NCBI GenBank assembly: GCA_025057015.1
Contig: JANWYG010000008.1
Span: 152,722-216,721 of the forward strand
Direction of reading: 5' to 3'
Length of the DNA stretch: 64,000 nt
From: Blastocatellia bacterium
GTDB taxonomy: Bacteria; Acidobacteriota; Blastocatellia; Chloracidobacteriales; JADJPF01
The notes below the pieces were generated by a model. That model did not search any database. It saw only the letters and a list, made by a program, of their open reading frames with translations, and had not been told where the DNA came from. Position numbers and translations under genes: made by a program. The first letter of the stretch is position 1. Each line of letters begins with the position of its first letter. Below, piece by piece: positions 21,460 to 30,621 of this stretch.

Positions 21460-22188
21460 CTATGAATAGTAGCTCATACTGCGGCTTAAAAGGGCTACTG
21501 GGTCGTCGACATTTAATGCTTCGCGTACATAGAAGGCTTCAGCATGTCCGACATTGATGAGAGAGCCGAAGTAGCGTTGCCGCGCTATTACGTGATCGAT
21601 GAACTGCTTCTGGCTGATAGCTGACGCTGGTTCACTGCTGTTTGGATCATAAAACTGGGATTTGTGAAGGAGCATCACTTCTAACTTCTTTTCAGCGAAA
21701 TCAGATATGTCCACTAAGAAGCTAGGGACAACCGTCCGTGGAAAGAGAAAATGGGCTATTGCCAATGGACGGTGGCGTGTTTGTCCGTCTTCTAGAGCAT
21801 ACTTGTACAGCCCGGCTAGGTGTGCACTTTCTCTCACTATCCTAGCCGTAGCAGCATGGTCAGGGTGTGGATCATCCCAAAAGTGGGTAAAGACTACTTT
21901 CGGGCGCAGTTTTCTCAATGCTCTGACCATTAGAGTGCGAGAAGTGTCGTCGCAGGATATACGTGCATCAGGCAAGGACAGAGTCTCTCGTATAGTAAGC
22001 TGCATGGCTGCTGCAGCCGCTCTAGCTTCGGCAGCTCGTACTTCGCGAGTCCCACGCGTACCCATCTCGCCAAGAGACATATCTATTACTGCGACTTTGT
22101 AGCCCATCGAGACGAGCTTGAGGATGGTGCCTCCGGCGCTTATCTCTACATCATCAGGGTGTGCTCCTATGAATAGAGCATCTATCAT
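21460..22188 (-). CDS. bshB1: bacillithiol biosynthesis-type N-acetylglucosaminyl-malate deacetylase
   Basis: 242 residues of the LmbE/PIG-L zinc deacetylase family. The A-H-P-D-D-V-E metal-binding and catalytic motif lies at 9-15; D-P-H-P-D-H-A near 106-112 gives another metal ligand. The pattern of the N-terminus (M-I-D-A-L-F-I-G-A-H-P-D-D) and length fit BshB1. Known reaction: removes acetyl from GlcNAc-malate, the second step to bacillithiol. bshA and bshC are not in the window. It overlaps the phosphatase gene upstream by four bases (ATGA). Confidence 0.85.
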   Translation of the reverse strand: MIDALFIGAHPDDVEISAGGTILKLVSMGYKVAVIDMSLGEMGTRGTREVRAAEARAAAAAMQLTIRETLSLPDARISCDDTSRTLMVRALRKLRPKVVFTHFWDDPHPDHAATARIVRESAHLAGLYKYALEDGQTRHRPLAIAHFLFPRTVVPSFLVDISDFAEKKLEVMLLHKSQFYDPNSSEPASAISQKQFIDHVIARQRYFGSLINVGHAEAFYVREALNVDDPVALLSRSMSYYS

Positions 22189-24194
22189 AGCTTTACTCCT
22201 ATTATAGTGACATCATCGCGTTGAGGTGTATTGCGGCAAAAAGCATCAAATTCTGCTTCAAGAAGCGATTTCTGTACTTCTGTCGGCAGGGTGTGTATTC
22301 TGCTCAAAAGTTCTACAAATCGCCTACTGCTATAACGCGGGATAAGCTCGGAATTCTGATCTATAAATCCGTCTGTCGTCAGATATATCATCATCCCTTC
22401 CCACCGGGATAGGAACTTTTCTTCTTTTTTCTTGACTTCTTTTTTCTTGCCCGAGAAGGAAAAAGATTTGGAAAGTACACCTATCTCACCGCTTTGTGTG
22501 GAGTAGTAGAGAGGTCGACCTGCTAACGCCACTGTTATACCTAGTTCATCTATGCGACAAAGCAGTATGTCTAAATTTATGTTCTCCCGTGAGAACTTGC
22601 CCAAGGCTTCTTCTAATAGAGATAGTATTTGTGCTGGGCTATTGATCTGTTCTTTCATGATTTGTGAGAGTAAGACAGTCGCCATTACGGCTGTCATAGC
22701 TGCTGGTACGCCATGACCTTCACAATCTATCACTGCAAGAAACTTGGCCGATGGTGTTTCATAAAACCAGTAGAAATCGCCTGATACTATGTCTTTGGGT
22801 CTATATATGACGAAGACGTCCAGTTTTTCTTTTAAGCGCTCGGGAGTCGGCAGCATAGACTGCTGTATTTTCTGGGCGTAGGTAATCGACTCTATAATAT
22901 TCTTGTTTTTAAGTTCTATTTCTTCATGCTGACGTGCTATCTCTTGTGTCCTTTCAGCTACTTTTTGCTCTAGCTTTTTGTTCAGTTCTTCAAGTTCGTT
23001 GTGAATATCGACGAAGCGATTTGCCAGCGATATTGCCATGGTATAGATGAATATCGCGAAACCTGTCTTAGGTAACTCCCTCTTTAGCATAGGTGATAGA
23101 GGCACGTCAAACACGTTTATGATGTCTATGAGATAGACTAACACTAGTAAAGCTAGGACTGAGAACCCTAGCATTATGGATAGTAGCTGTTGTTTGCGTA
23201 TTGGAAGTTGTTTTATTAGAATCCACAAAGAAGTAAGGACCGTGATAGTTCCGCAAACAAAAAGGAGAAAGAGACCTGACCTTCCGGTGACAAATTCTAG
23301 TTTGCCGGACATATAGACTAGCATAGCTAAGATGCATAGTCCGGTTTGTGCCTTCATCCAAAACTTAAACCTAATCGATAACAGCGTGACGAAAAAAGGC
23401 AGAGATAGCATCAACGTCGCACTGGCAGTGGTTCTTGCCATAACGTGGGCTAGCTTAAAGCTCAGTACTTCAGCCCTCCAAAGTGGTAGCATTGCAGAAT
23501 TTATAGAGAACAAACAAGCTATGAGTCCGTAAAATAGGTATTCTTTTAGGGCTTTTCTGCGTCGGTATAGATGTAGGTGATATAGTCCTACCACAAAAAA
23601 CAGTACCGAGAGAGTGTAAGAAAATAGGCTTTTATCTCTGTCATCAAGTATTTGTTCGAGCCTACTTACTTTTAAGTGAGTATATTCGCCTAGAATGATG
23701 CTTGGTAACCTTAGATTATCGTATTGTAAGGCTTTAAATTCGGGATCGAGCCAGATACGTAGGGCTAGAGAGGACACTTTGTTTGGTTGTATAGGTAGTT
23801 CATGGATCGATAAGAACAGTTTATTGCTGTGGGCTATGACTGGAGGAAAGCTTCCTTGTGAGGCAACTTTTGCTCCATCTAGATAAACTTCGTAGGCAGC
23901 TCCGGGATAGATTTGTATTCCTATGGCAGGTTTAAATGTCTGGCAATTTACACTGAGCTTGATGTCTCGGCGTAGCCAATAGTAACCGTCGAGGCTTGCT
24001 GGGCTAATATCTTTAGTGCTTTTCCAAATTTCTTTACCGTGTGTCCAAGCTGGAAGATCACCTTTGCGACAATATAGCTCAGATAAGTGGTGCTGAGTAT
24101 TGGAGATCTCAAATACAGTATCGGCGCCTGAAGCCAGGCTGTGCATGGAGAGTGAACTTGTTGTTGTAAGCAAAATAAGGAGTAGTCTAGTCAA
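22185..24194 (-). CDS. 7TM-DISM-like membrane receptor with SpoIIE (PP2C) phosphatase domain
   Basis: 669 residues. A signal peptide (about 1-22) leads to a ~170-residue extracytoplasmic domain, then about seven membrane helices (about 190-400), a coiled coil (about 405-445, with V-A-E-R-T-Q-E-I) and a SpoIIE-type PP2C domain. The metal-binding residues are in V-S-G-D-F-Y and D-C-E-G-H-G-V-P-A-A-M. Such proteins dephosphorylate anti-sigma factor antagonists in partner-switching pathways; no such partner is next to it. The start is a TTG at 24194, supported by the complete signal peptide. It is divergent from the antiporter operon, with under 40 bases between them. Confidence 0.83.
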   Translation of the reverse strand: MTRLLLILLTTTSSLSMHSLASGADTVFEISNTQHHLSELYCRKGDLPAWTHGKEIWKSTKDISPASLDGYYWLRRDIKLSVNCQTFKPAIGIQIYPGAAYEVYLDGAKVASQGSFPPVIAHSNKLFLSIHELPIQPNKVSSLALRIWLDPEFKALQYDNLRLPSIILGEYTHLKVSRLEQILDDRDKSLFSYTLSVLFFVVGLYHLHLYRRRKALKEYLFYGLIACLFSINSAMLPLWRAEVLSFKLAHVMARTTASATLMLSLPFFVTLLSIRFKFWMKAQTGLCILAMLVYMSGKLEFVTGRSGLFLLFVCGTITVLTSLWILIKQLPIRKQQLLSIMLGFSVLALLVLVYLIDIINVFDVPLSPMLKRELPKTGFAIFIYTMAISLANRFVDIHNELEELNKKLEQKVAERTQEIARQHEEIELKNKNIIESITYAQKIQQSMLPTPERLKEKLDVFVIYRPKDIVSGDFYWFYETPSAKFLAVIDCEGHGVPAAMTAVMATVLLSQIMKEQINSPAQILSLLEEALGKFSRENINLDILLCRIDELGITVALAGRPLYYSTQSGEIGVLSKSFSFSGKKKEVKKKEEKFLSRWEGMMIYLTTDGFIDQNSELIPRYSSRRFVELLSRIHTLPTEVQKSLLEAEFDAFCRNTPQRDDVTIIGVKL

Positions 24195-24231: not shown

Positions 24232-25572
24232 ATGATAATACATTACAAAATAACTATAGGGTTTCTATTTTTGGTAGATATGGAACAAGCGAGTGTATTT
24301 GGTTTGTCACTGGCATATTTACAATCTCAAGGATCGTCCCCACTCAAGCAAGCACTATTTCTACTTGCTTTGCTTGCTTTGGCATATGCGGTAAGTCACT
24401 TAGTTATCGAACGAGTCTCACAGCGTTTCGGGATAGTTACCGGAGTGGAATATATACTTTTTGGAGCTATACTTGGCGGTATAGGTTCCTTGGATACAGA
24501 AATGGCTTATCGTTTCCGTCCCCTTATCTTTCTGGGCATTGGGACGCTGGGGCTTCTCACAGGGCTGAGGCTTAATCTGAGGCAGTTCGGCAGGCTTGAT
24601 TTTGAGGCACTAAGAGTCGCTGCGGTAATTTCTTTTGTTACTTTGTTACTTGTTTCAGCACTTCCTGCTGCAGTACTGTTTGCAGCTGGTAAACGAGAAC
24701 TTTTGGTTACAATTTTGCCGGCTCTGCTCTGCATAGGTGCTGTATCGATGGTGGCTACACCGAAGTCAATTGCCTCTCTGATAGAGTTTATGAAAGCCGA
24801 AGGTGAAAGCGCTCTGTTGGTTGTTTCTGTGGCAAAGTTTTGTGCGAGCTTTGCCGTGATAGTTTTCGGGTTGATATTTTGCTTTTTTAATCCACGTGAA
24901 AGCCCAGTAACGAGTAGCTTTGGCTTCTGGCAGTGGATGGGAGTGCACCTGCTACTTGGTACGGTATTAGGCACTATCTTCGCAATGTTCCTGCGCAAGG
25001 GTTTTTCACAAGAGAAGACGCTGACGGTGGTCTTAGGAATGGTGGTATTTTCAAGTGGGCTGGCCTACTACCTACAGCTATCTCCTATACTGGTTAATGC
25101 CGTGCTGGGATTAGTGTTGATAAATACTTGCAGCCAAGGTGAAGAAGTCGAGCAAATGCTTTCCTCCATAGAGAGGCCTCTTTGCATAGTGCTTTTTGTC
25201 TTTGCGGGTGTAAGCTGGAACTTTGTACATCGCTGGTGGAGTTTTTGGCTCTTTGCTCCTTACCTATTGCTGAGATACATAGGGCGCGGGCTAGGCGGAG
25301 CAGTTGCATCGTTTGGCTCGCTTTTGGATAAGCGGTTGCCAGGTATGGGGAGGGCCTTGCTCGCTCCTGGAGGGTTAAGCGTGGCTATGATACTGAACTT
25401 TGATGCTGTCTACGGACAGACACTTTATGGACCTGCCGTATATACTACCCTCCTGCTAGGGGTCATCATCAGTGACGTACTGTCTTATTCTCGCACTAGA
25501 TCTTGGTTGATAGATGCTACAGGTGTTAGGCTAGAAAAGAACTTGGAAAAACCGTCTGAGGAACTTGTCTGA
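24232..25572 (+). CDS. Na+/H+ exchanger-like membrane protein, probably lacking the ion-binding aspartate
   Basis: 446 residues from the ATG at 24232; the frame is open upstream but would run into the divergent gene. About 11-12 hydrophobic segments resemble the CPA2/Kef-type cation:proton antiporter fold. In the helix that normally carries D or DD, this protein reads V-V-S-V-A-K-F-C-A-S-F, with K202 near the usual acid. The unwound-helix region A-T-P-K-S-I-A-S is present at 175-182. It may be a non-transporting or altered partner of the next protein. Its stop overlaps the start of the next gene (TGATG). The start codon choice is uncertain since no good ribosome binding site is visible. Confidence 0.75.
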   Translation: MIIHYKITIGFLFLVDMEQASVFGLSLAYLQSQGSSPLKQALFLLALLALAYAVSHLVIERVSQRFGIVTGVEYILFGAILGGIGSLDTEMAYRFRPLIFLGIGTLGLLTGLRLNLRQFGRLDFEALRVAAVISFVTLLLVSALPAAVLFAAGKRELLVTILPALLCIGAVSMVATPKSIASLIEFMKAEGESALLVVSVAKFCASFAVIVFGLIFCFFNPRESPVTSSFGFWQWMGVHLLLGTVLGTIFAMFLRKGFSQEKTLTVVLGMVVFSSGLAYYLQLSPILVNAVLGLVLINTCSQGEEVEQMLSSIERPLCIVLFVFAGVSWNFVHRWWSFWLFAPYLLLRYIGRGLGGAVASFGSLLDKRLPGMGRALLAPGGLSVAMILNFDAVYGQTLYGPAVYTTLLLGVIISDVLSYSRTRSWLIDATGVRLEKNLEKPSEELV

Positions 25573-28500
25573 TGTGGCAGATAGCAACTATTGTCGTAAT
25601 GCTGCTTCTGATGATAGGCCTTAGACTGCTAGGTATTAGCTCATTTTCTGGCGAGCTTCGACCTGAAAGCACCGTAGCAGCAGGCTTTCTGTTAGTTTGC
25701 GGCTTTACTATGGGTGAGCTGTTTAGGAGGCTGGGACTACCTGCGCTGCTAGGTTATATAGCTCTTGGAATCTTGTTCGGACCTAGCTTAGTCCCTTTGG
25801 CCTTTGGTTCGGAAGTGACGCTATTTAGCAGCGAAGTAATCCAGGATCTGTCATTAATAAGCGTGCCTACGATTGGAGTAATAGGAATCATAGGAGGTGG
25901 TGAGCTTAAAATAGCAGATGTAAAAAATAATTTGAAATATATCCTTGCAATAGTTGCAGCTATTTTTGTAGCTACTACTATAGCTATAGTTGGACTTATA
26001 CTGTGTATGTCACATTTGTTTATTAATAACATAAGTTTCCTAATAAATGTATCATTTCAAGAGAAGTTAGCAGCAGCATTAATATTTGGAATACTTGCCG
26101 TAGGAATGAGTCCTTCCGCTACGATAGCTGTCATACAAGATCTACGTGCAAAAGGTAGTCTGACTTCGCTCGTACTGGGCATAGTTGTAGTACTTGATAT
26201 GTTGTTAGTGGCAAGTTTTTTGCTCAGCCTTGCGATAGCTAGGCTGCTGGTCAATGCGCAATTGGAGCTTAATTCGATAATGGAAGTACTGCCCAAGATA
26301 GGTTCTGAGTTTGGTTGGGCTATATTGATAGGTGTAGCTACTGCTTTTACGTTTGTAATATATTTACGCTATATTCATCGAGAAAAGTTACTTTTTACAC
26401 TTCTGATAATTTTTGGAGCATCCTATGCTTGTTCTTTGCTACATGCAGAAACGCTGCTTGCCTTTCTAATAGCTGGTTTTTGTGTGCAAAACTTTTCACG
26501 CCATGGCAGTAACTTAATACATACTTTAGAGACCATAAGTCTTCCGGTATTTGTTTTGTATTTTTCCATACAAGCTATGAGTCTAGATCTAAGCGTTTTA
26601 CCTAGGTATCTAACTCTGACTCTAGCTATTATAGCTACTAGAATAATTGTGTTTACCGCTGCTATTTGGCTTGCTGCTAAGTGGGTGGGCCTGTCTGAGG
26701 CTATTAGCAAGAACATATGGATGTGTTTTTATTCTCAGGGAGGGGTTGATTTAGTATTGGCGGCGATGGTGCCTCCGGTGATACCTACTTGGGGAACAGA
26801 GCTGCAGATAGTGACCATAGCGACGGTGATAGTGTACATAGTGATGGGGCCACCTTTGCTTAAGTTAGCGCTTGATCGAGCCAGTGAAACAGAGCAGGCA
26901 CGCCAGAAAGCGAGGGAAGAAACGGCGGCGTTAGATCAGGCCTTCAGTAGGCAGCGGCCGGTGGTTACTGCAAGTCAGCCGTTTTATGTACCTACGTGTA
27001 GTGATGCTGAACTTAGCGAGAGACTTTCACAGCTACGAAGGCTTTTCGTCGACTTATATCAAGAGTATCTCGTTCAACCTTCACAAGCCTACAATGATAA
27101 ATTGAGCAACCTTGTACACAAGCTTGATGAGGCGTCTAAGAACGTGTTTGTAAGGTTACAAGAGTTACTAGCTAAGCAAGATCGGATAGAAAGTGAGCTA
27201 GAGCGGCTCAAAGTAGAGTGGCGGCTTAGTATACAACCTGAGGTTAACCAGTTAGGGCTTGTACCTGCTTTGCCGGTCTCTCTAGCCATGATAAAAAAGA
27301 TCCTTGCACAAGTGCATAGTGCCGTACAGTTTGACTTAGTGATTAAAGTCAAACTCGAGGAGGAACTCTTTAGGCGGGGGCCGGACGATCGACTGCTAAG
27401 GCGTTTTCTTAAAGGGCTTCGTAGATTACGACAGGCTTGCCTAGGTACTAGCAGCCGTAGCGTCTATCTAGGAAAGCTGTGGTGTTACTATGTAGAGCTT
27501 TCGCTTGCAAGGTACCTTGCCAGCGCTGCGGCGACGACTTCGAGGCAGAACATACTGTTTTGGTATAACCTAGGGCTGCATATAAGGAAGGTGGATAGAG
27601 GGCTGGATGAGCTTGTTAAATTAGCTGGAGAGAATCCTAGTCTGTTGGCAGAAGCAGTTCAGAAGCAAGCCAAAGACAATGAAGCTAGGTTACGACAGAT
27701 ACGTGAGCAACTTGCTTTGGCTACAAGTTCGAGACTGGAAAAGTACTCTTGGGGGCTGCACCAGGTATTTAAAGAGTTCATTCAAGGTGTAAGCAAGTGT
27801 GGTACTTTGGAACTTCCCTCGTTTAACTATCGCCCTTCTACTAGGATTGACGCTGCTCGTCGTGCTGAAGAGCACCTTCGTACGATTCTGTCAAGAGAGG
27901 AAAAGATAGTCACGGGTTATCGCGGTTGGTTGTATTTAGACCAGCAACTAGCCTTGTTCAATAGTAAGTATAGGGAGTATCAGAACAAGGTTTTAAGGCT
28001 GCTAGAAGAGAATTTAGGGGATTGTGGAAACGATTTTGAACTGCTTGCAAGACAGCTAACTACAGCCTCACAAAAGTGTCTACCTTCTGAGGAGTTTCGA
28101 ACTCACTGGATAGAGTCTCTAGTTGAGTCCATAAAGCCAACGCTTGAGCTTACCCGCAAGAGGATTGAACAGGGAACAGTGCTTTTTAGGGAGAGTGCTA
28201 CGAGGGAGCTATTTGAGCTACTTGCAGGTATAGTCGACCGGTTTTCAGAGAGTCTGACGGTGACGCTGCAAGATCCGGACGTAGAGCCGCCTAACAACAG
28301 CAGCATTGAGACATTGAATCTACCTATAAGACGATGGTTTGAGACGAAGCTAGTGCGTGATATAGCCATCAGGCTTGCGGAGTTTTCTGAGCGTACTGAA
28401 GTGCTTTTGCAACGTGCTTCGGTGGATTTAAATCGCGTGCAAAGCATCCTAGACTTCAATCTGATAGTGCTTGAACGCGAAGCAGATGAACTTGCTCTGC

Positions 28501-29927
28501 TTGAAAAGCAGATGCTAAATGCGCTTCGTCGGGCGGCGAAGATAGCCGAGCAGTCGGCTGAGCACATAAAGTCGCAGACTAGCGAATTGAGCCGCTGGAT
28601 GCGCAAAGAAATGGCCCAGATATTGAGTCGTGCCAGTTATCCGTTTGAAGCACATAAAATACAGGAAGTACAGCGCGAGTTTCCTGCTAGGGCAGAGCGC
28701 GTGCAGGAGGTTGCAAAAGCAACTCTTTCTCTCTACCGTCAGTATTTCCCGCTTGTAGCCGAGTTTGTAGAAACCGCTCGTCGAAAGGTAACTGATAGTC
28801 AGCCCTGCATGCGCCGGGACGAGTTCCTGAGCAAGGCCAGGGACTTGCATTTACTGCCGCGAACATATAGAAGGCTTTTTCTACCTTTGCCCTTGGACAT
28901 AGCAGATTTTTACGTGCAGCGTCCTGCTATAGAAGCTGAGCTTGCTGCTGCGATCAACGGTTGGGCAGCAGGTCAAGCTGTCTCGATTCTGGTCTATGGT
29001 GAGCGCGGTACAGGCAAACGTACTGTAGTTCAGCACTTGTTACATCAAAACCAGCAGGTTTTGCAGATAGGAAGTCACCTTGAAGAGTGTACTCTTAGGC
29101 TAGATGATTTGACTTGTAGCGAGGAAGATGTCTGTAGACAGATGGCAGCATTGAGGGGTGAAGGGCTGGTAGGCAGTTTTGAGGCGTTTACTTCGCTTGT
29201 ACGTGCTGATGAATCTAAGCGCGTCTACGTGGTAGAAAATGCAGAAAAGCTGTATGAACGCTCAGAACGAGGGATGAAGCTTTGCAAAGCATTCTTGAAG
29301 ATGGTTTCGGCTACGTCTAATCGCGTCTTGTGGATAGTCTTGCTGCGCAGGCCAGCGGTAACATTGTTACAGAGCAGTTTGTGCCTGTATGATTATTTCA
29401 CCCATAAAGTGGAGGTAGAGGCTTTTGATTTCGAGGCCTTGGTACAGCTTATTCAAAAACGGCATAGTGTAAGCGGCTTTGAGCTTGAGTATAGTTTGCC
29501 TAGGGTACAGAGGTGGATTGGGAAAGCAGAGCAGCCGCAGCAACTTTTCTTCGAGAGGCTCTATCAGGTGAGCAAAGGTATACCCTTGTTGGCTATGATC
29601 TACTGGTTGAATTCTATTCATACTGTGTCAGAAGACGAGATGTTGCTTAGGGTCGAACTGCCACCTGAGGAGCCGTTGGTGCTTATCGACGATTTGAGTC
29701 TGAACAAACGTCTATTGCTTTCTTACTTGCTTCAGCATAGTTCTCTCACTGCTCCGCAAGCAGCGCGACTGCTCGGATGGAACAGCGAGCAGGTGGAGAC
29801 CGAAGTTGAACACCTTATGCGGCTGGGTCTAGTCGAAAGAATCAGTGCTACGATGAATAGCTATAGGGTTAGAGCGTTCTTTGAGCCTCTGTTAGCTATG
29901 GAGCTACGTAGGCAGAATTTTTGTTGA
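25572..29927 (+). CDS. giant fusion: Kef-like antiporter domain, long helical region, P-loop ATPase, winged helix
   Basis: 1451 residues. Residues about 1-432 hold ~12 membrane helices of a CPA-type exchanger; here the expected acid is kept (D209 in V-V-V-L-D-M) and the A-V-G-M-S-P-S-A-T-I-A loop is at 176-186. Residues about 440-1110 are charged and mostly helical, with likely coiled coils. From about 1120 a AAA/STAND-like NTPase follows: P-loop G-E-R-G-T-G-K-R-T at 1143-1151 (Arg where S/T is usual, Thr next), a degenerate Walker B V-Y-V-V-E-N-A-E (1218-1225). A winged-helix-like end lies near 1395-1435. Fusion of an exchanger with such an ATPase is not an architecture I know a name for. 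It is between an exchanger-like gene and an MscS-like gene, all in one operon. Confidence 0.85.
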   Translation: MWQIATIVVMLLLMIGLRLLGISSFSGELRPESTVAAGFLLVCGFTMGELFRRLGLPALLGYIALGILFGPSLVPLAFGSEVTLFSSEVIQDLSLISVPTIGVIGIIGGGELKIADVKNNLKYILAIVAAIFVATTIAIVGLILCMSHLFINNISFLINVSFQEKLAAALIFGILAVGMSPSATIAVIQDLRAKGSLTSLVLGIVVVLDMLLVASFLLSLAIARLLVNAQLELNSIMEVLPKIGSEFGWAILIGVATAFTFVIYLRYIHREKLLFTLLIIFGASYACSLLHAETLLAFLIAGFCVQNFSRHGSNLIHTLETISLPVFVLYFSIQAMSLDLSVLPRYLTLTLAIIATRIIVFTAAIWLAAKWVGLSEAISKNIWMCFYSQGGVDLVLAAMVPPVIPTWGTELQIVTIATVIVYIVMGPPLLKLALDRASETEQARQKAREETAALDQAFSRQRPVVTASQPFYVPTCSDAELSERLSQLRRLFVDLYQEYLVQPSQAYNDKLSNLVHKLDEASKNVFVRLQELLAKQDRIESELERLKVEWRLSIQPEVNQLGLVPALPVSLAMIKKILAQVHSAVQFDLVIKVKLEEELFRRGPDDRLLRRFLKGLRRLRQACLGTSSRSVYLGKLWCYYVELSLARYLASAAATTSRQNILFWYNLGLHIRKVDRGLDELVKLAGENPSLLAEAVQKQAKDNEARLRQIREQLALATSSRLEKYSWGLHQVFKEFIQGVSKCGTLELPSFNYRPSTRIDAARRAEEHLRTILSREEKIVTGYRGWLYLDQQLALFNSKYREYQNKVLRLLEENLGDCGNDFELLARQLTTASQKCLPSEEFRTHWIESLVESIKPTLELTRKRIEQGTVLFRESATRELFELLAGIVDRFSESLTVTLQDPDVEPPNNSSIETLNLPIRRWFETKLVRDIAIRLAEFSERTEVLLQRASVDLNRVQSILDFNLIVLEREADELALLEKQMLNALRRAAKIAEQSAEHIKSQTSELSRWMRKEMAQILSRASYPFEAHKIQEVQREFPARAERVQEVAKATLSLYRQYFPLVAEFVETARRKVTDSQPCMRRDEFLSKARDLHLLPRTYRRLFLPLPLDIADFYVQRPAIEAELAAAINGWAAGQAVSILVYGERGTGKRTVVQHLLHQNQQVLQIGSHLEECTLRLDDLTCSEEDVCRQMAALRGEGLVGSFEAFTSLVRADESKRVYVVENAEKLYERSERGMKLCKAFLKMVSATSNRVLWIVLLRRPAVTLLQSSLCLYDYFTHKVEVEAFDFEALVQLIQKRHSVSGFELEYSLPRVQRWIGKAEQPQQLFFERLYQVSKGIPLLAMIYWLNSIHTVSEDEMLLRVELPPEEPLVLIDDLSLNKRLLLSYLLQHSSLTAPQAARLLGWNSEQVETEVEHLMRLGLVERISATMNSYRVRAFFEPLLAMELRRQNFC

Positions 29928-29931
29928 GACT

Positions 29932-30621
29932 ATGCTGTTTGTGTTTCTATCTTTCTTGCTGATAGTCACTACTGGTTTAACTTCCAGATTATCTCGGCTT
30001 CGGTTGACAAATCGTTTCAGAGGATGGTTGCTGTTAATTCAAGTGCTTGTCTGGTTGGTGTTTATAACTAGTGTGGGGTTTGCTCTGGCTGACATGCTAG
30101 ACAGACGGAAATACTTCTTCTTGGTAGCTGTATTAGCAGCGGTTGCAGGAGCAGGCTTTCCATTATTGCGGAGCATACTGGCTGGTATATCAATAGCTTG
30201 GGAAAATAGCTTGAAGTTTGGGGATTACGTCTCGATAGGCTCTTACAGTGGTTACGTGCAGGGATTTGGATTGCGTAGCGTGAGGCTAGAGACGAAAGAT
30301 TCTGTCCTGATTGACATACCTAACTACGAGTTTGTTGGTAAGCCATTTACTGTGCTGTGCACATCTAGCGCATATCCTTGTGAGTTAGAGCTAACCTTGC
30401 CTTCACTTGCAATCTCAGAAGAGGTGTTGGATAAGCTCAGTTTTATAGCACAGCTTAATCCGTATGCTGCTCCTTCAGCTAGGGCAGAAGTATTTTTGAT
30501 AGACTCTTCAAAAAACTCTTGTCGGATACTTCTAAGAGGATATGTGTTGAATCCTTGTTATAGTGCGCACTACCGCAGTGAGGTAATCAAACGTGTGTAT
30601 CTAGAGCTGCATGACCGATAG
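29932..30621 (+). CDS. small MscS-like mechanosensitive channel family protein
   Basis: 229 residues. Three hydrophobic segments (about 1-20, 27-52, 58-82) are followed by an MscS pore/beta region: G-I-S-I-A-W-E-N-S-L-K-F-G-D-Y-V-S-I-G near 85-105 and the D-I-P-N-Y-E-F motif near 128. It is shorter than E. coli MscS (286). The family forms heptameric tension-gated channels. It starts four bases after the stop of the fusion gene, which points to one mRNA and a shared function. A hairpin of 7 bp overlaps its stop codon (30615-30633). Confidence 0.82.
   Translation: MLFVFLSFLLIVTTGLTSRLSRLRLTNRFRGWLLLIQVLVWLVFITSVGFALADMLDRRKYFFLVAVLAAVAGAGFPLLRSILAGISIAWENSLKFGDYVSIGSYSGYVQGFGLRSVRLETKDSVLIDIPNYEFVGKPFTVLCTSSAYPCELELTLPSLAISEEVLDKLSFIAQLNPYAAPSARAEVFLIDSSKNSCRILLRGYVLNPCYSAHYRSEVIKRVYLELHDR

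What the first reader, a model, noticed from the sequence alone, without database searches (positions are those of the whole stretch)
24232..30621. Three-gene operon: antiporter-like protein, antiporter-ATPase fusion, MscS-like channel
Three plus-strand genes overlap by one base and by a 4-base gap. The first is an exchanger-fold protein, the second a 1451-residue chain that joins a Kef-like exchanger (about 1-432), ~680 helical residues and a C-terminal P-loop ATPase with winged helix, the third a short MscS. I know of no named system with this set. It reads as an ATPase-gated ion exchange device, with a pressure valve, perhaps for turgor or pH stress, or as a defence-like effector. All function here is inference; the domain calls are by pattern.
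Basis: partly seen in the sequence, partly recalled or inferred. Interest (0 to 1): 0.78.

Follow-up and report, generated by a model that had tools for sequence, protein, structure and literature searches.

The report
Antiporter–P-loop fusion with MscS channel
Three adjacent genes for two ion-exchanger proteins (one fused to a nucleotide-binding module) and a pressure-channel protein form a real, unnamed unit that recurs in several bacterial phyla, most often together with potassium-uptake genes, so it probably helps cells control potassium and water pressure.

Summary
The three-gene operon is real and at the stated coordinates. Gene 1 is a cation/proton-antiporter-fold protein without the usual ion-binding acid. 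Gene 2 is an antiporter that keeps that acid, fused to ~640 helical residues and an ORC/Cdc6–STAND-like P-loop domain with a winged helix. Gene 3 is a short MscS.

It is not unique. Of 27 fused relatives examined (Acidobacteriota, KSB1, Myxococcota), all have gene 1 upstream and MscS downstream. In 19 of them trkA and trkH lie between gene 1 and the fusion, giving a five-gene potassium operon; eight, including the window, lack Trk. The P-loop/helical module also occurs alone or fused to a K-Cl cotransporter-like protein. In 68 of 68 loci across at least five phyla an MscS gene lies downstream on the same strand (67 directly), and the two proteins co-diverge. The antiporter half is elsewhere fused to trehalose-phosphate synthase.

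Best reading: a potassium/turgor homeostasis unit in which a nucleotide-binding module links an antiporter to an MscS channel. 'ATPase-gated' is doubtful: Walker motifs are altered in this lineage. Defence is not supported. No database family or paper I could find names the system. Function is untested.

The parts
24232..25572 (+). Gene 1 ('EXA'): CPA-fold exchanger-like protein, 446 aa, probably a non-transporting partner subunit
   Evidence: Pfam PF00999 6.9e-8; AlphaFold2 pLDDT 77.7, Foldseek to MjNhaP1/NapA TM 0.64-0.72; TM5 pair Cys-Ala where active exchangers have Asn/Asp-Asp
25572..29927 (+). Gene 2: EXB-helical-P-loop fusion, 1451 aa
   Evidence: full-length relatives in 26 other loci, 34-42% identity to Trk-less myxococcal ones
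25572..26900 (+). Exchanger domain EXB of gene 2, residues 1-443
   Evidence: PF00999 2.3e-17; profile aligns to MjNhaP1, NHE6, NapA
26196..26198 (+). Asp209 codon, TM5 ion-binding Asp (Leu-Asp, aligned with the Asn-Asp of NHE/NhaP)
   Evidence: invariant in the EXB alignment A6; aligned to ND of NHE6 and MjNhaP1; Asp or Glu in nearly all EXB
26889..28823 (+). Long helical region, residues ~440-1084
   Evidence: AlphaFold2 model, long helices up to 80 residues, moderate confidence; homologous to the stand-alone ~930-aa proteins
28824..29927 (+). P-loop domain plus winged helix, residues 1085-1451
   Evidence: AAA_16/AAA_22; Foldseek to ORC/Cdc6, TnsC, STAND proteins, E down to 2e-7; profile A2 to AAA+
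28998..29024 (+). Variant Walker A GERGTGKRT (Arg replaces Ser/Thr after Lys)
   Evidence: alignment of 41 and 31 family members
29223..29240 (+). Variant Walker B VYVVEN
29932..30621 (+). Gene 3: short MscS-family channel, 229 aa, three predicted transmembrane helices plus beta domain
   Evidence: PF00924 3.6e-13; family profile spans MscS residues 30-266; nearest relatives are the MscS partners of the nearest P-loop relatives

Best explanation
The operon encodes a potassium/proton-exchange and turgor-release unit. EXB (gene 2, N-terminal) is the active cation/proton antiporter, probably working as a heterodimer with EXA (gene 1), which has the fold but lacks the ion-binding acid. The C-terminal helical stalk and ORC/STAND-like P-loop module docks onto the cytoplasmic side of the dedicated MscS channel (gene 3) and couples the state of antiporter and channel to a cytoplasmic signal, most likely a bound nucleotide, so that cation efflux and emergency solute release are controlled together. 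In most relatives TrkA/TrkH add the uptake arm. Shown: gene content, order, conservation, co-divergence of P-loop protein and MscS, conserved and altered motifs, folds by prediction. Inferred: K+ as the ion, heterodimer, physical complex, direction of control, nucleotide as signal.
For: EXA-fusion-MscS order in 27 of 27 fused loci, with trkA-trkH between EXA and the fusion in 19 (TrkH/TrkA). MscS downstream of the P-loop gene on the same strand in 68 of 68 loci, 67 directly. The loci were found with P-loop or fusion queries, not MscS. P-loop and MscS similarities correlate (Spearman 0.69, 0 of 2000 permutations) and MscS follows the P-loop type, not the genome, in two genomes that hold two pairs (trees). 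The genome has only 4 MscS domains, 2 of them beside its 2 P-loop family members. Swapped transporter partner: K-Cl cotransporter-like in G142. Osmolyte link: EXB fused to trehalose-phosphate synthase in 10 loci. EXB keeps the TM5 Asp, EXA generally does not.
Against: No experiment. The window copy lacks Trk, and no TrkH, KdpA or Kup was found in its genome, so the K+ link is by analogy. Walker motifs are altered in this subclade and in most Trk-type fusions, so nucleotide binding is not assured. Helical region is modelled at moderate confidence, pTM 0.55. Some EXA proteins keep an acidic residue at one of the two TM5 positions (GD, SD, DE), so 'non-transporting' is least secure outside the window. 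Two EXB have Asn and two have Glu at the Asp position.
Confidence: 0.55

Rival explanations
1. Ion and pH homeostasis (Na+/H+ or K+/H+ antiport) is the job, and the P-loop domain is a degenerate scaffold that only anchors MscS to the antiporter; there is no nucleotide control.
For: Walker A loses Ser/Thr (GKR, GKA) or the Lys itself (GRT, GNA) in most fused proteins.
Against: The variants are conserved within subclades (GKRT and VEN in the window and five myxococcal relatives), which suggests a retained function; stand-alone and K-Cl-fused members keep canonical GKT/GKS.
Confidence: 0.2
2. It is a stress or anti-phage effector: a STAND-like sensor that opens MscS and the antiporter to depolarise or kill the cell.
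For: The P-loop/winged-helix fold is shared with STAND proteins (NLR, Apaf-1 and CED-4 among Foldseek hits); MscS could act as a pore effector.
Against: Trk genes in the operon, trehalose-synthase fusions, vertical-looking P-loop/MscS co-divergence, only marginal PADLOC hits (best 0.0012, to generic AAA parts), no phage match and no fused protein on plasmids. No recognised defence genes among the neighbours annotated by Pfam.
Confidence: 0.06
3. The three genes are independent transport genes that merely sit together; the fusion is a chance read-through.
For: All three belong to families common in bacteria.
Against: 27 of 27 conserved order over at least three phyla, trees with the fusion as a stable protein over long divergence.
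Confidence: 0.03

Closest known systems
KefC/KefB (with KefF/KefG)
   Same: Antiporter of the CPA superfamily with a C-terminal cytosolic, nucleotide-related regulatory module and a helper gene; potassium efflux (features of Kef from PMC10224563).
   Different: No KTN/RCK domain; LD/KD in place of the QD signature; TSP/MSP in place of SST; a P-loop plus winged helix on a long helical stalk instead; an exchanger-like partner and MscS instead of KefF. The genome has a separate Kef/RosB-like protein with QD and TrkA-N (G000:C23).
MscS / MscK / MscM channels
   Same: Gene 3 and its relatives carry the MscS TM3-beta domain and align along most of E. coli MscS.
   Different: Dedicated to a P-loop partner gene; the window protein is short and divergent. 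One P-loop subfamily itself has an MscK-like N-terminus (signal/periplasmic coiled coil plus TMs), by appearance only.
TrkAH potassium uptake
   Same: Genes of this system lie in the same operon in 19 of 27 fused loci.
   Different: Absent from the window; Trk is not known to be coupled to an antiporter-P-loop fusion.
ORC/Cdc6, TnsC and STAND NTPases (Apaf-1, NLR)
   Same: Fold of the P-loop domain followed by a winged helix.
   Different: Joined to membrane transporters; altered Walker A and B; no sign of a DNA role.

Membership tests
Cation:proton antiporter superfamily (PF00999) | Na_H_Exchanger domain above the curated cut-off | tested here: met
   Genes 1 and 2, 32.2 and 63.4 bits against 26.2
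Cation:proton antiporter superfamily (PF00999) | TM5 ion-binding Asp | tested here: met
   EXB of gene 2: Asp209
Cation:proton antiporter superfamily (PF00999), gene 1 as an active exchanger | TM5 ion-binding Asp | tested here: not met
   Cys-Ala at the position in the window EXA
Kef | C-terminal KTN/RCK (TrkA-N) domain | tested here: not met
   No TrkA_N hit in gene 2
Kef | SST...QD signature | tested here: not met
   MSPS...LD in the window; signature from PMC10224563
Kef | KefF/KefG oxidoreductase gene next door | tested here: not met
   Neighbours are EXA and MscS
Kef | Glutathione-conjugate gating | not testable with these tools
   needs transport assay
MscS (PF00924) | beta domain above cut-off, preceded by the TM3 region | tested here: met
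   49.9 bits against 20.2; three predicted TMs
MscS (PF00924) | Opens by membrane tension | not testable with these tools
   needs patch clamp
AAA+/STAND P-loop NTPase | P-loop fold with winged helix | tested here: met
   Pfam scores only just below cut-offs
AAA+/STAND P-loop NTPase | Canonical Walker A GxxxxGK[ST] and Walker B hhhhD[DE] | tested here: not met
   GERGTGKRT and VYVVEN
Trk-type five-gene operon | trkA and trkH between EXA and the fusion | tested here: not met
   absent in the window; no TrkH in the genome
Known anti-phage defence system | PADLOC model match | tested here: not met
   only marginal hits

The most novel reading that the evidence does not exclude
A previously undescribed class of ion-homeostasis machine: an ORC/STAND-like P-loop module that is the obligate partner of a dedicated MscS channel across at least five phyla, and that recruits different cation transporters by fusion (CPA antiporter pair with or without Trk, K-Cl cotransporter-like, MscK-like membrane part), so that uptake, exchange and emergency release of K+ are run by one nucleotide-responsive assembly.
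Probability: 0.35. Interest if true: 0.9.

Novelty: new variant of a known kind. Interest (0 to 1): 0.72.

Why it matters
How bacteria coordinate K+ uptake, cation/proton exchange and emergency release is usually studied with separate systems (Trk, Kef, MscS). Here the genes for all three are tied together by a P-loop protein of unknown function that is always next to an MscS gene. If the coupling is physical, it would be the first MscS channel with a dedicated nucleotide-binding partner that I know of, and it makes a direct question testable: can an MscS channel or a cation antiporter be gated by a STAND-like protein? The families are unnamed in Pfam and NCBIfam, so many genes in Acidobacteriota, Myxococcota, Bacteroidota/Balneolota and others would gain a working hypothesis.

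Tried and rejected
(1) Reading the window's altered Walker A as decay: rejected, because GKRT/VEN is shared by five myxococcal relatives of the same Trk-less clade; it had looked like a lone outlier among the first 41. (2) Membership in Kef: rejected on three tested features. (3) Anti-phage defence or mobile element: searches gave no support. (7) PDB search by sequence with gene 1 or its family profile found nothing; its fold was shown by model instead. (8) Paper searches for an MscS-ATPase pair, an antiporter-ATPase fusion or a Trk-antiporter-MscS operon found nothing relevant; only open-licence papers are held. (9) Simple promoter and terminator scans gave no more than shuffles, so the operon end is not fixed by them.
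Full report
What is there. Three plus-strand genes, 24232-25572, 25572-29927 and 29932-30621, overlap by one base and are separated by four bases. Upstream and divergent is a SpoIIE-type phosphatase gene (22185-24194 minus), downstream after 131 bases an HtrA-like protease gene with a promoter-like site of its own. The contig also carries the translation-factor and ribosomal-protein cluster at the end of the window (ORFs; protein names from my own reading), so the operon is chromosomal. The genome is a 3.33-Mb assembly of 23 contigs; its 'same order' relative G005 is the record titled Blastocatellia bacterium SSF51 (same 39,500-base contig), so the host is probably in Blastocatellia, Acidobacteriota.

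Domains. Gene 1 and the N-terminus of gene 2 are exchangers by Pfam; gene 3 is MscS. The C-terminal domain of gene 2 is AAA-like by Pfam and ORC/Cdc6/STAND-like by model comparison. The gene 1 model is a clear CPA fold. Gene 2's exchanger keeps the TM5 Asp (Asp209), aligned with the Asn-Asp of NHE6 and MjNhaP1. Gene 1 has Cys-Ala at that place; its relatives have NQ, DT, CS, CT, GD, SD and others, without a fixed acid. I infer that gene 1 is a partner subunit in which transport has been lost or altered.

Not unique. Searching relatives and the phylum showed three separable things. First, EXA+EXB pairs without the P-loop module are widespread. In ten Acidobacteriota loci EXB is fused to a trehalose-phosphate-synthase-like glycosyltransferase, and once to RCK plus EIIA domains. 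Second, a stand-alone ~930-1030-aa helical/P-loop protein is followed by an MscS gene; the window's own genome has one such pair elsewhere (G000:C13). Third, the fusion as in the window.

Spread of the fusion. It is present in G018 and G181 (Acidobacteriota), in a KSB1 genome, and in many genomes of the Myxococcota group around G412. By my reading of the listing, at least 42 of 284 genomes there have one open frame covering both ends. I read 27 fused loci in detail. All have EXA upstream and MscS downstream. In 19 the order is EXA-trkA-trkH-fusion-MscS, with a steady 2.8-3.4 kb between the two exchanger domains. Eight lack Trk. The TrkA/TrkH call rests on Pfam for L109 trkH, on profiles built from L109 and L054, and on my reading of the L109 and L054 proteins.

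Obligate MscS partner. Counting each locus once, I have 68 P-loop loci from Acidobacteriota, KSB1, Bacteroidota/Balneolota, Margulisbacteria, Myxococcota and two MAGs labelled Burkholderiales and UBP9. All 68 have MscS downstream on the same strand. In 67 it is the next gene, allowing for over-long ORF starts; in L187 it is 2.07 kb away. None of the queries contained MscS. The window genome has only four MscS domains in all. Similarity among P-loop domains predicts similarity among MscS partners (Spearman 0.69; 0 of 2000 permutations as high). In the two genomes holding two pairs, each MscS follows its own P-loop type: the five nearest MscS relatives of the window are the partners of its five nearest P-loop relatives (trees). 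Shared descent of genomes can inflate the correlation, but not the within-genome comparison.

Where the window belongs. In a tree of 27 fusions the window lies in a Trk-less clade with five myxococcal-group proteins (support 100/100; full-length identity 39% to L187), not with G018 of its own class. That hints at transfer between lineages; sampling is too thin to say in which direction. This clade shares Walker A GxxGxGKRT, and EN or ED at Walker B. Among Trk-type fusions Walker A is often GKA, GRT or GNA, while stand-alone and K-Cl-cotransporter-fused members keep GKT/GKS. So ATP hydrolysis by the window protein should not be assumed; altered nucleotide sensing or a structural role are both open.

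How it most likely works. Comparative context points to K+ and turgor: Trk in the operon, a K-Cl-cotransporter-like protein in place of the antiporter in one fusion (G142; TIGR00930 5.9e-108 below its cut-off), an osmolyte-synthesis enzyme fused to the same antiporter elsewhere, and MscS throughout. The simplest model is a membrane assembly in which the helical stalk and P-loop module link antiporter and channel and set both by one cytoplasmic signal. Steps shown: gene sets, order, co-divergence, motifs, predicted folds. Steps inferred: ion identity, EXA-EXB heterodimer, contact with MscS, nucleotide as signal.

K+ uptake in this genome. No TrkH, KdpA or Kup family member was found, in an assembly estimated 97% complete. 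There is a K+-channel-like protein with an RCK domain and a Kef/RosB-like antiporter (both identified by reading plus PF02254). So the window operon would have to work with some other uptake route.

Novelty. The parts are members of known families; the assembly and the P-loop/MscS partnership have no name in Pfam, NCBIfam or PADLOC and no paper found. I class it as a new variant of a known kind (ion-homeostasis system with a nucleotide-related regulatory module, as in Kef), with a 0.35 chance that it is a new kind of machine.

Noticed in passing
L055-L062, L090, L093 (for example L061 7792-10551): EXB antiporter fused to a trehalose-phosphate-synthase-like glycosyltransferase (GT20) in ten Acidobacteriota loci, with EXA next door or fused in front: an apparent direct link of ion exchange to osmolyte synthesis.
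   Followed up: partly
L066 7290-12353 (G142): K-Cl-cotransporter-like protein fused to the same P-loop domain (1687 aa), followed by an MscS gene.
   Followed up: partly
L067, L068, L069, L121, L122, L124: P-loop subfamily with N-terminal coiled coil and several TM helices, MscK-like in layout, again followed by MscS, in Acidobacteriota and Polyangia.
   Followed up: partly
G000 (whole genome): No TrkH/KtrB, KdpA or Kup family K+ importer found in a genome estimated 97% complete; only a K+-channel-like protein with RCK (L198 1129-2193).
   Followed up: partly
L025 4448-10668 (G000:C13): The genome's second P-loop/MscS pair follows a VWA-domain gene and an OmpA-like gene with a coiled coil, closely spaced: possible envelope link.
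   Followed up: no
L094, L095, L101: Several MscS-family genes clustered around stand-alone P-loop/MscS pairs, in L094 also with an exchanger gene.
   Followed up: no
L087 6566-9064: EXB-like exchanger fused to TrkA-N/TrkA-C and a PTS EIIA domain (832 aa).
   Followed up: no
L187 14939-17130 and L188 14106-15457: A protein resembling 3-hydroxyanthranilate dioxygenase (by my reading only) lies just beyond the MscS gene in two myxococcal-group loci.
   Followed up: no
window 22185-24194 (-): Divergent gene with a SpoIIE phosphatase domain and many N-terminal TM helices starts 38 bases from gene 1; the two may share a control region.
   Followed up: no
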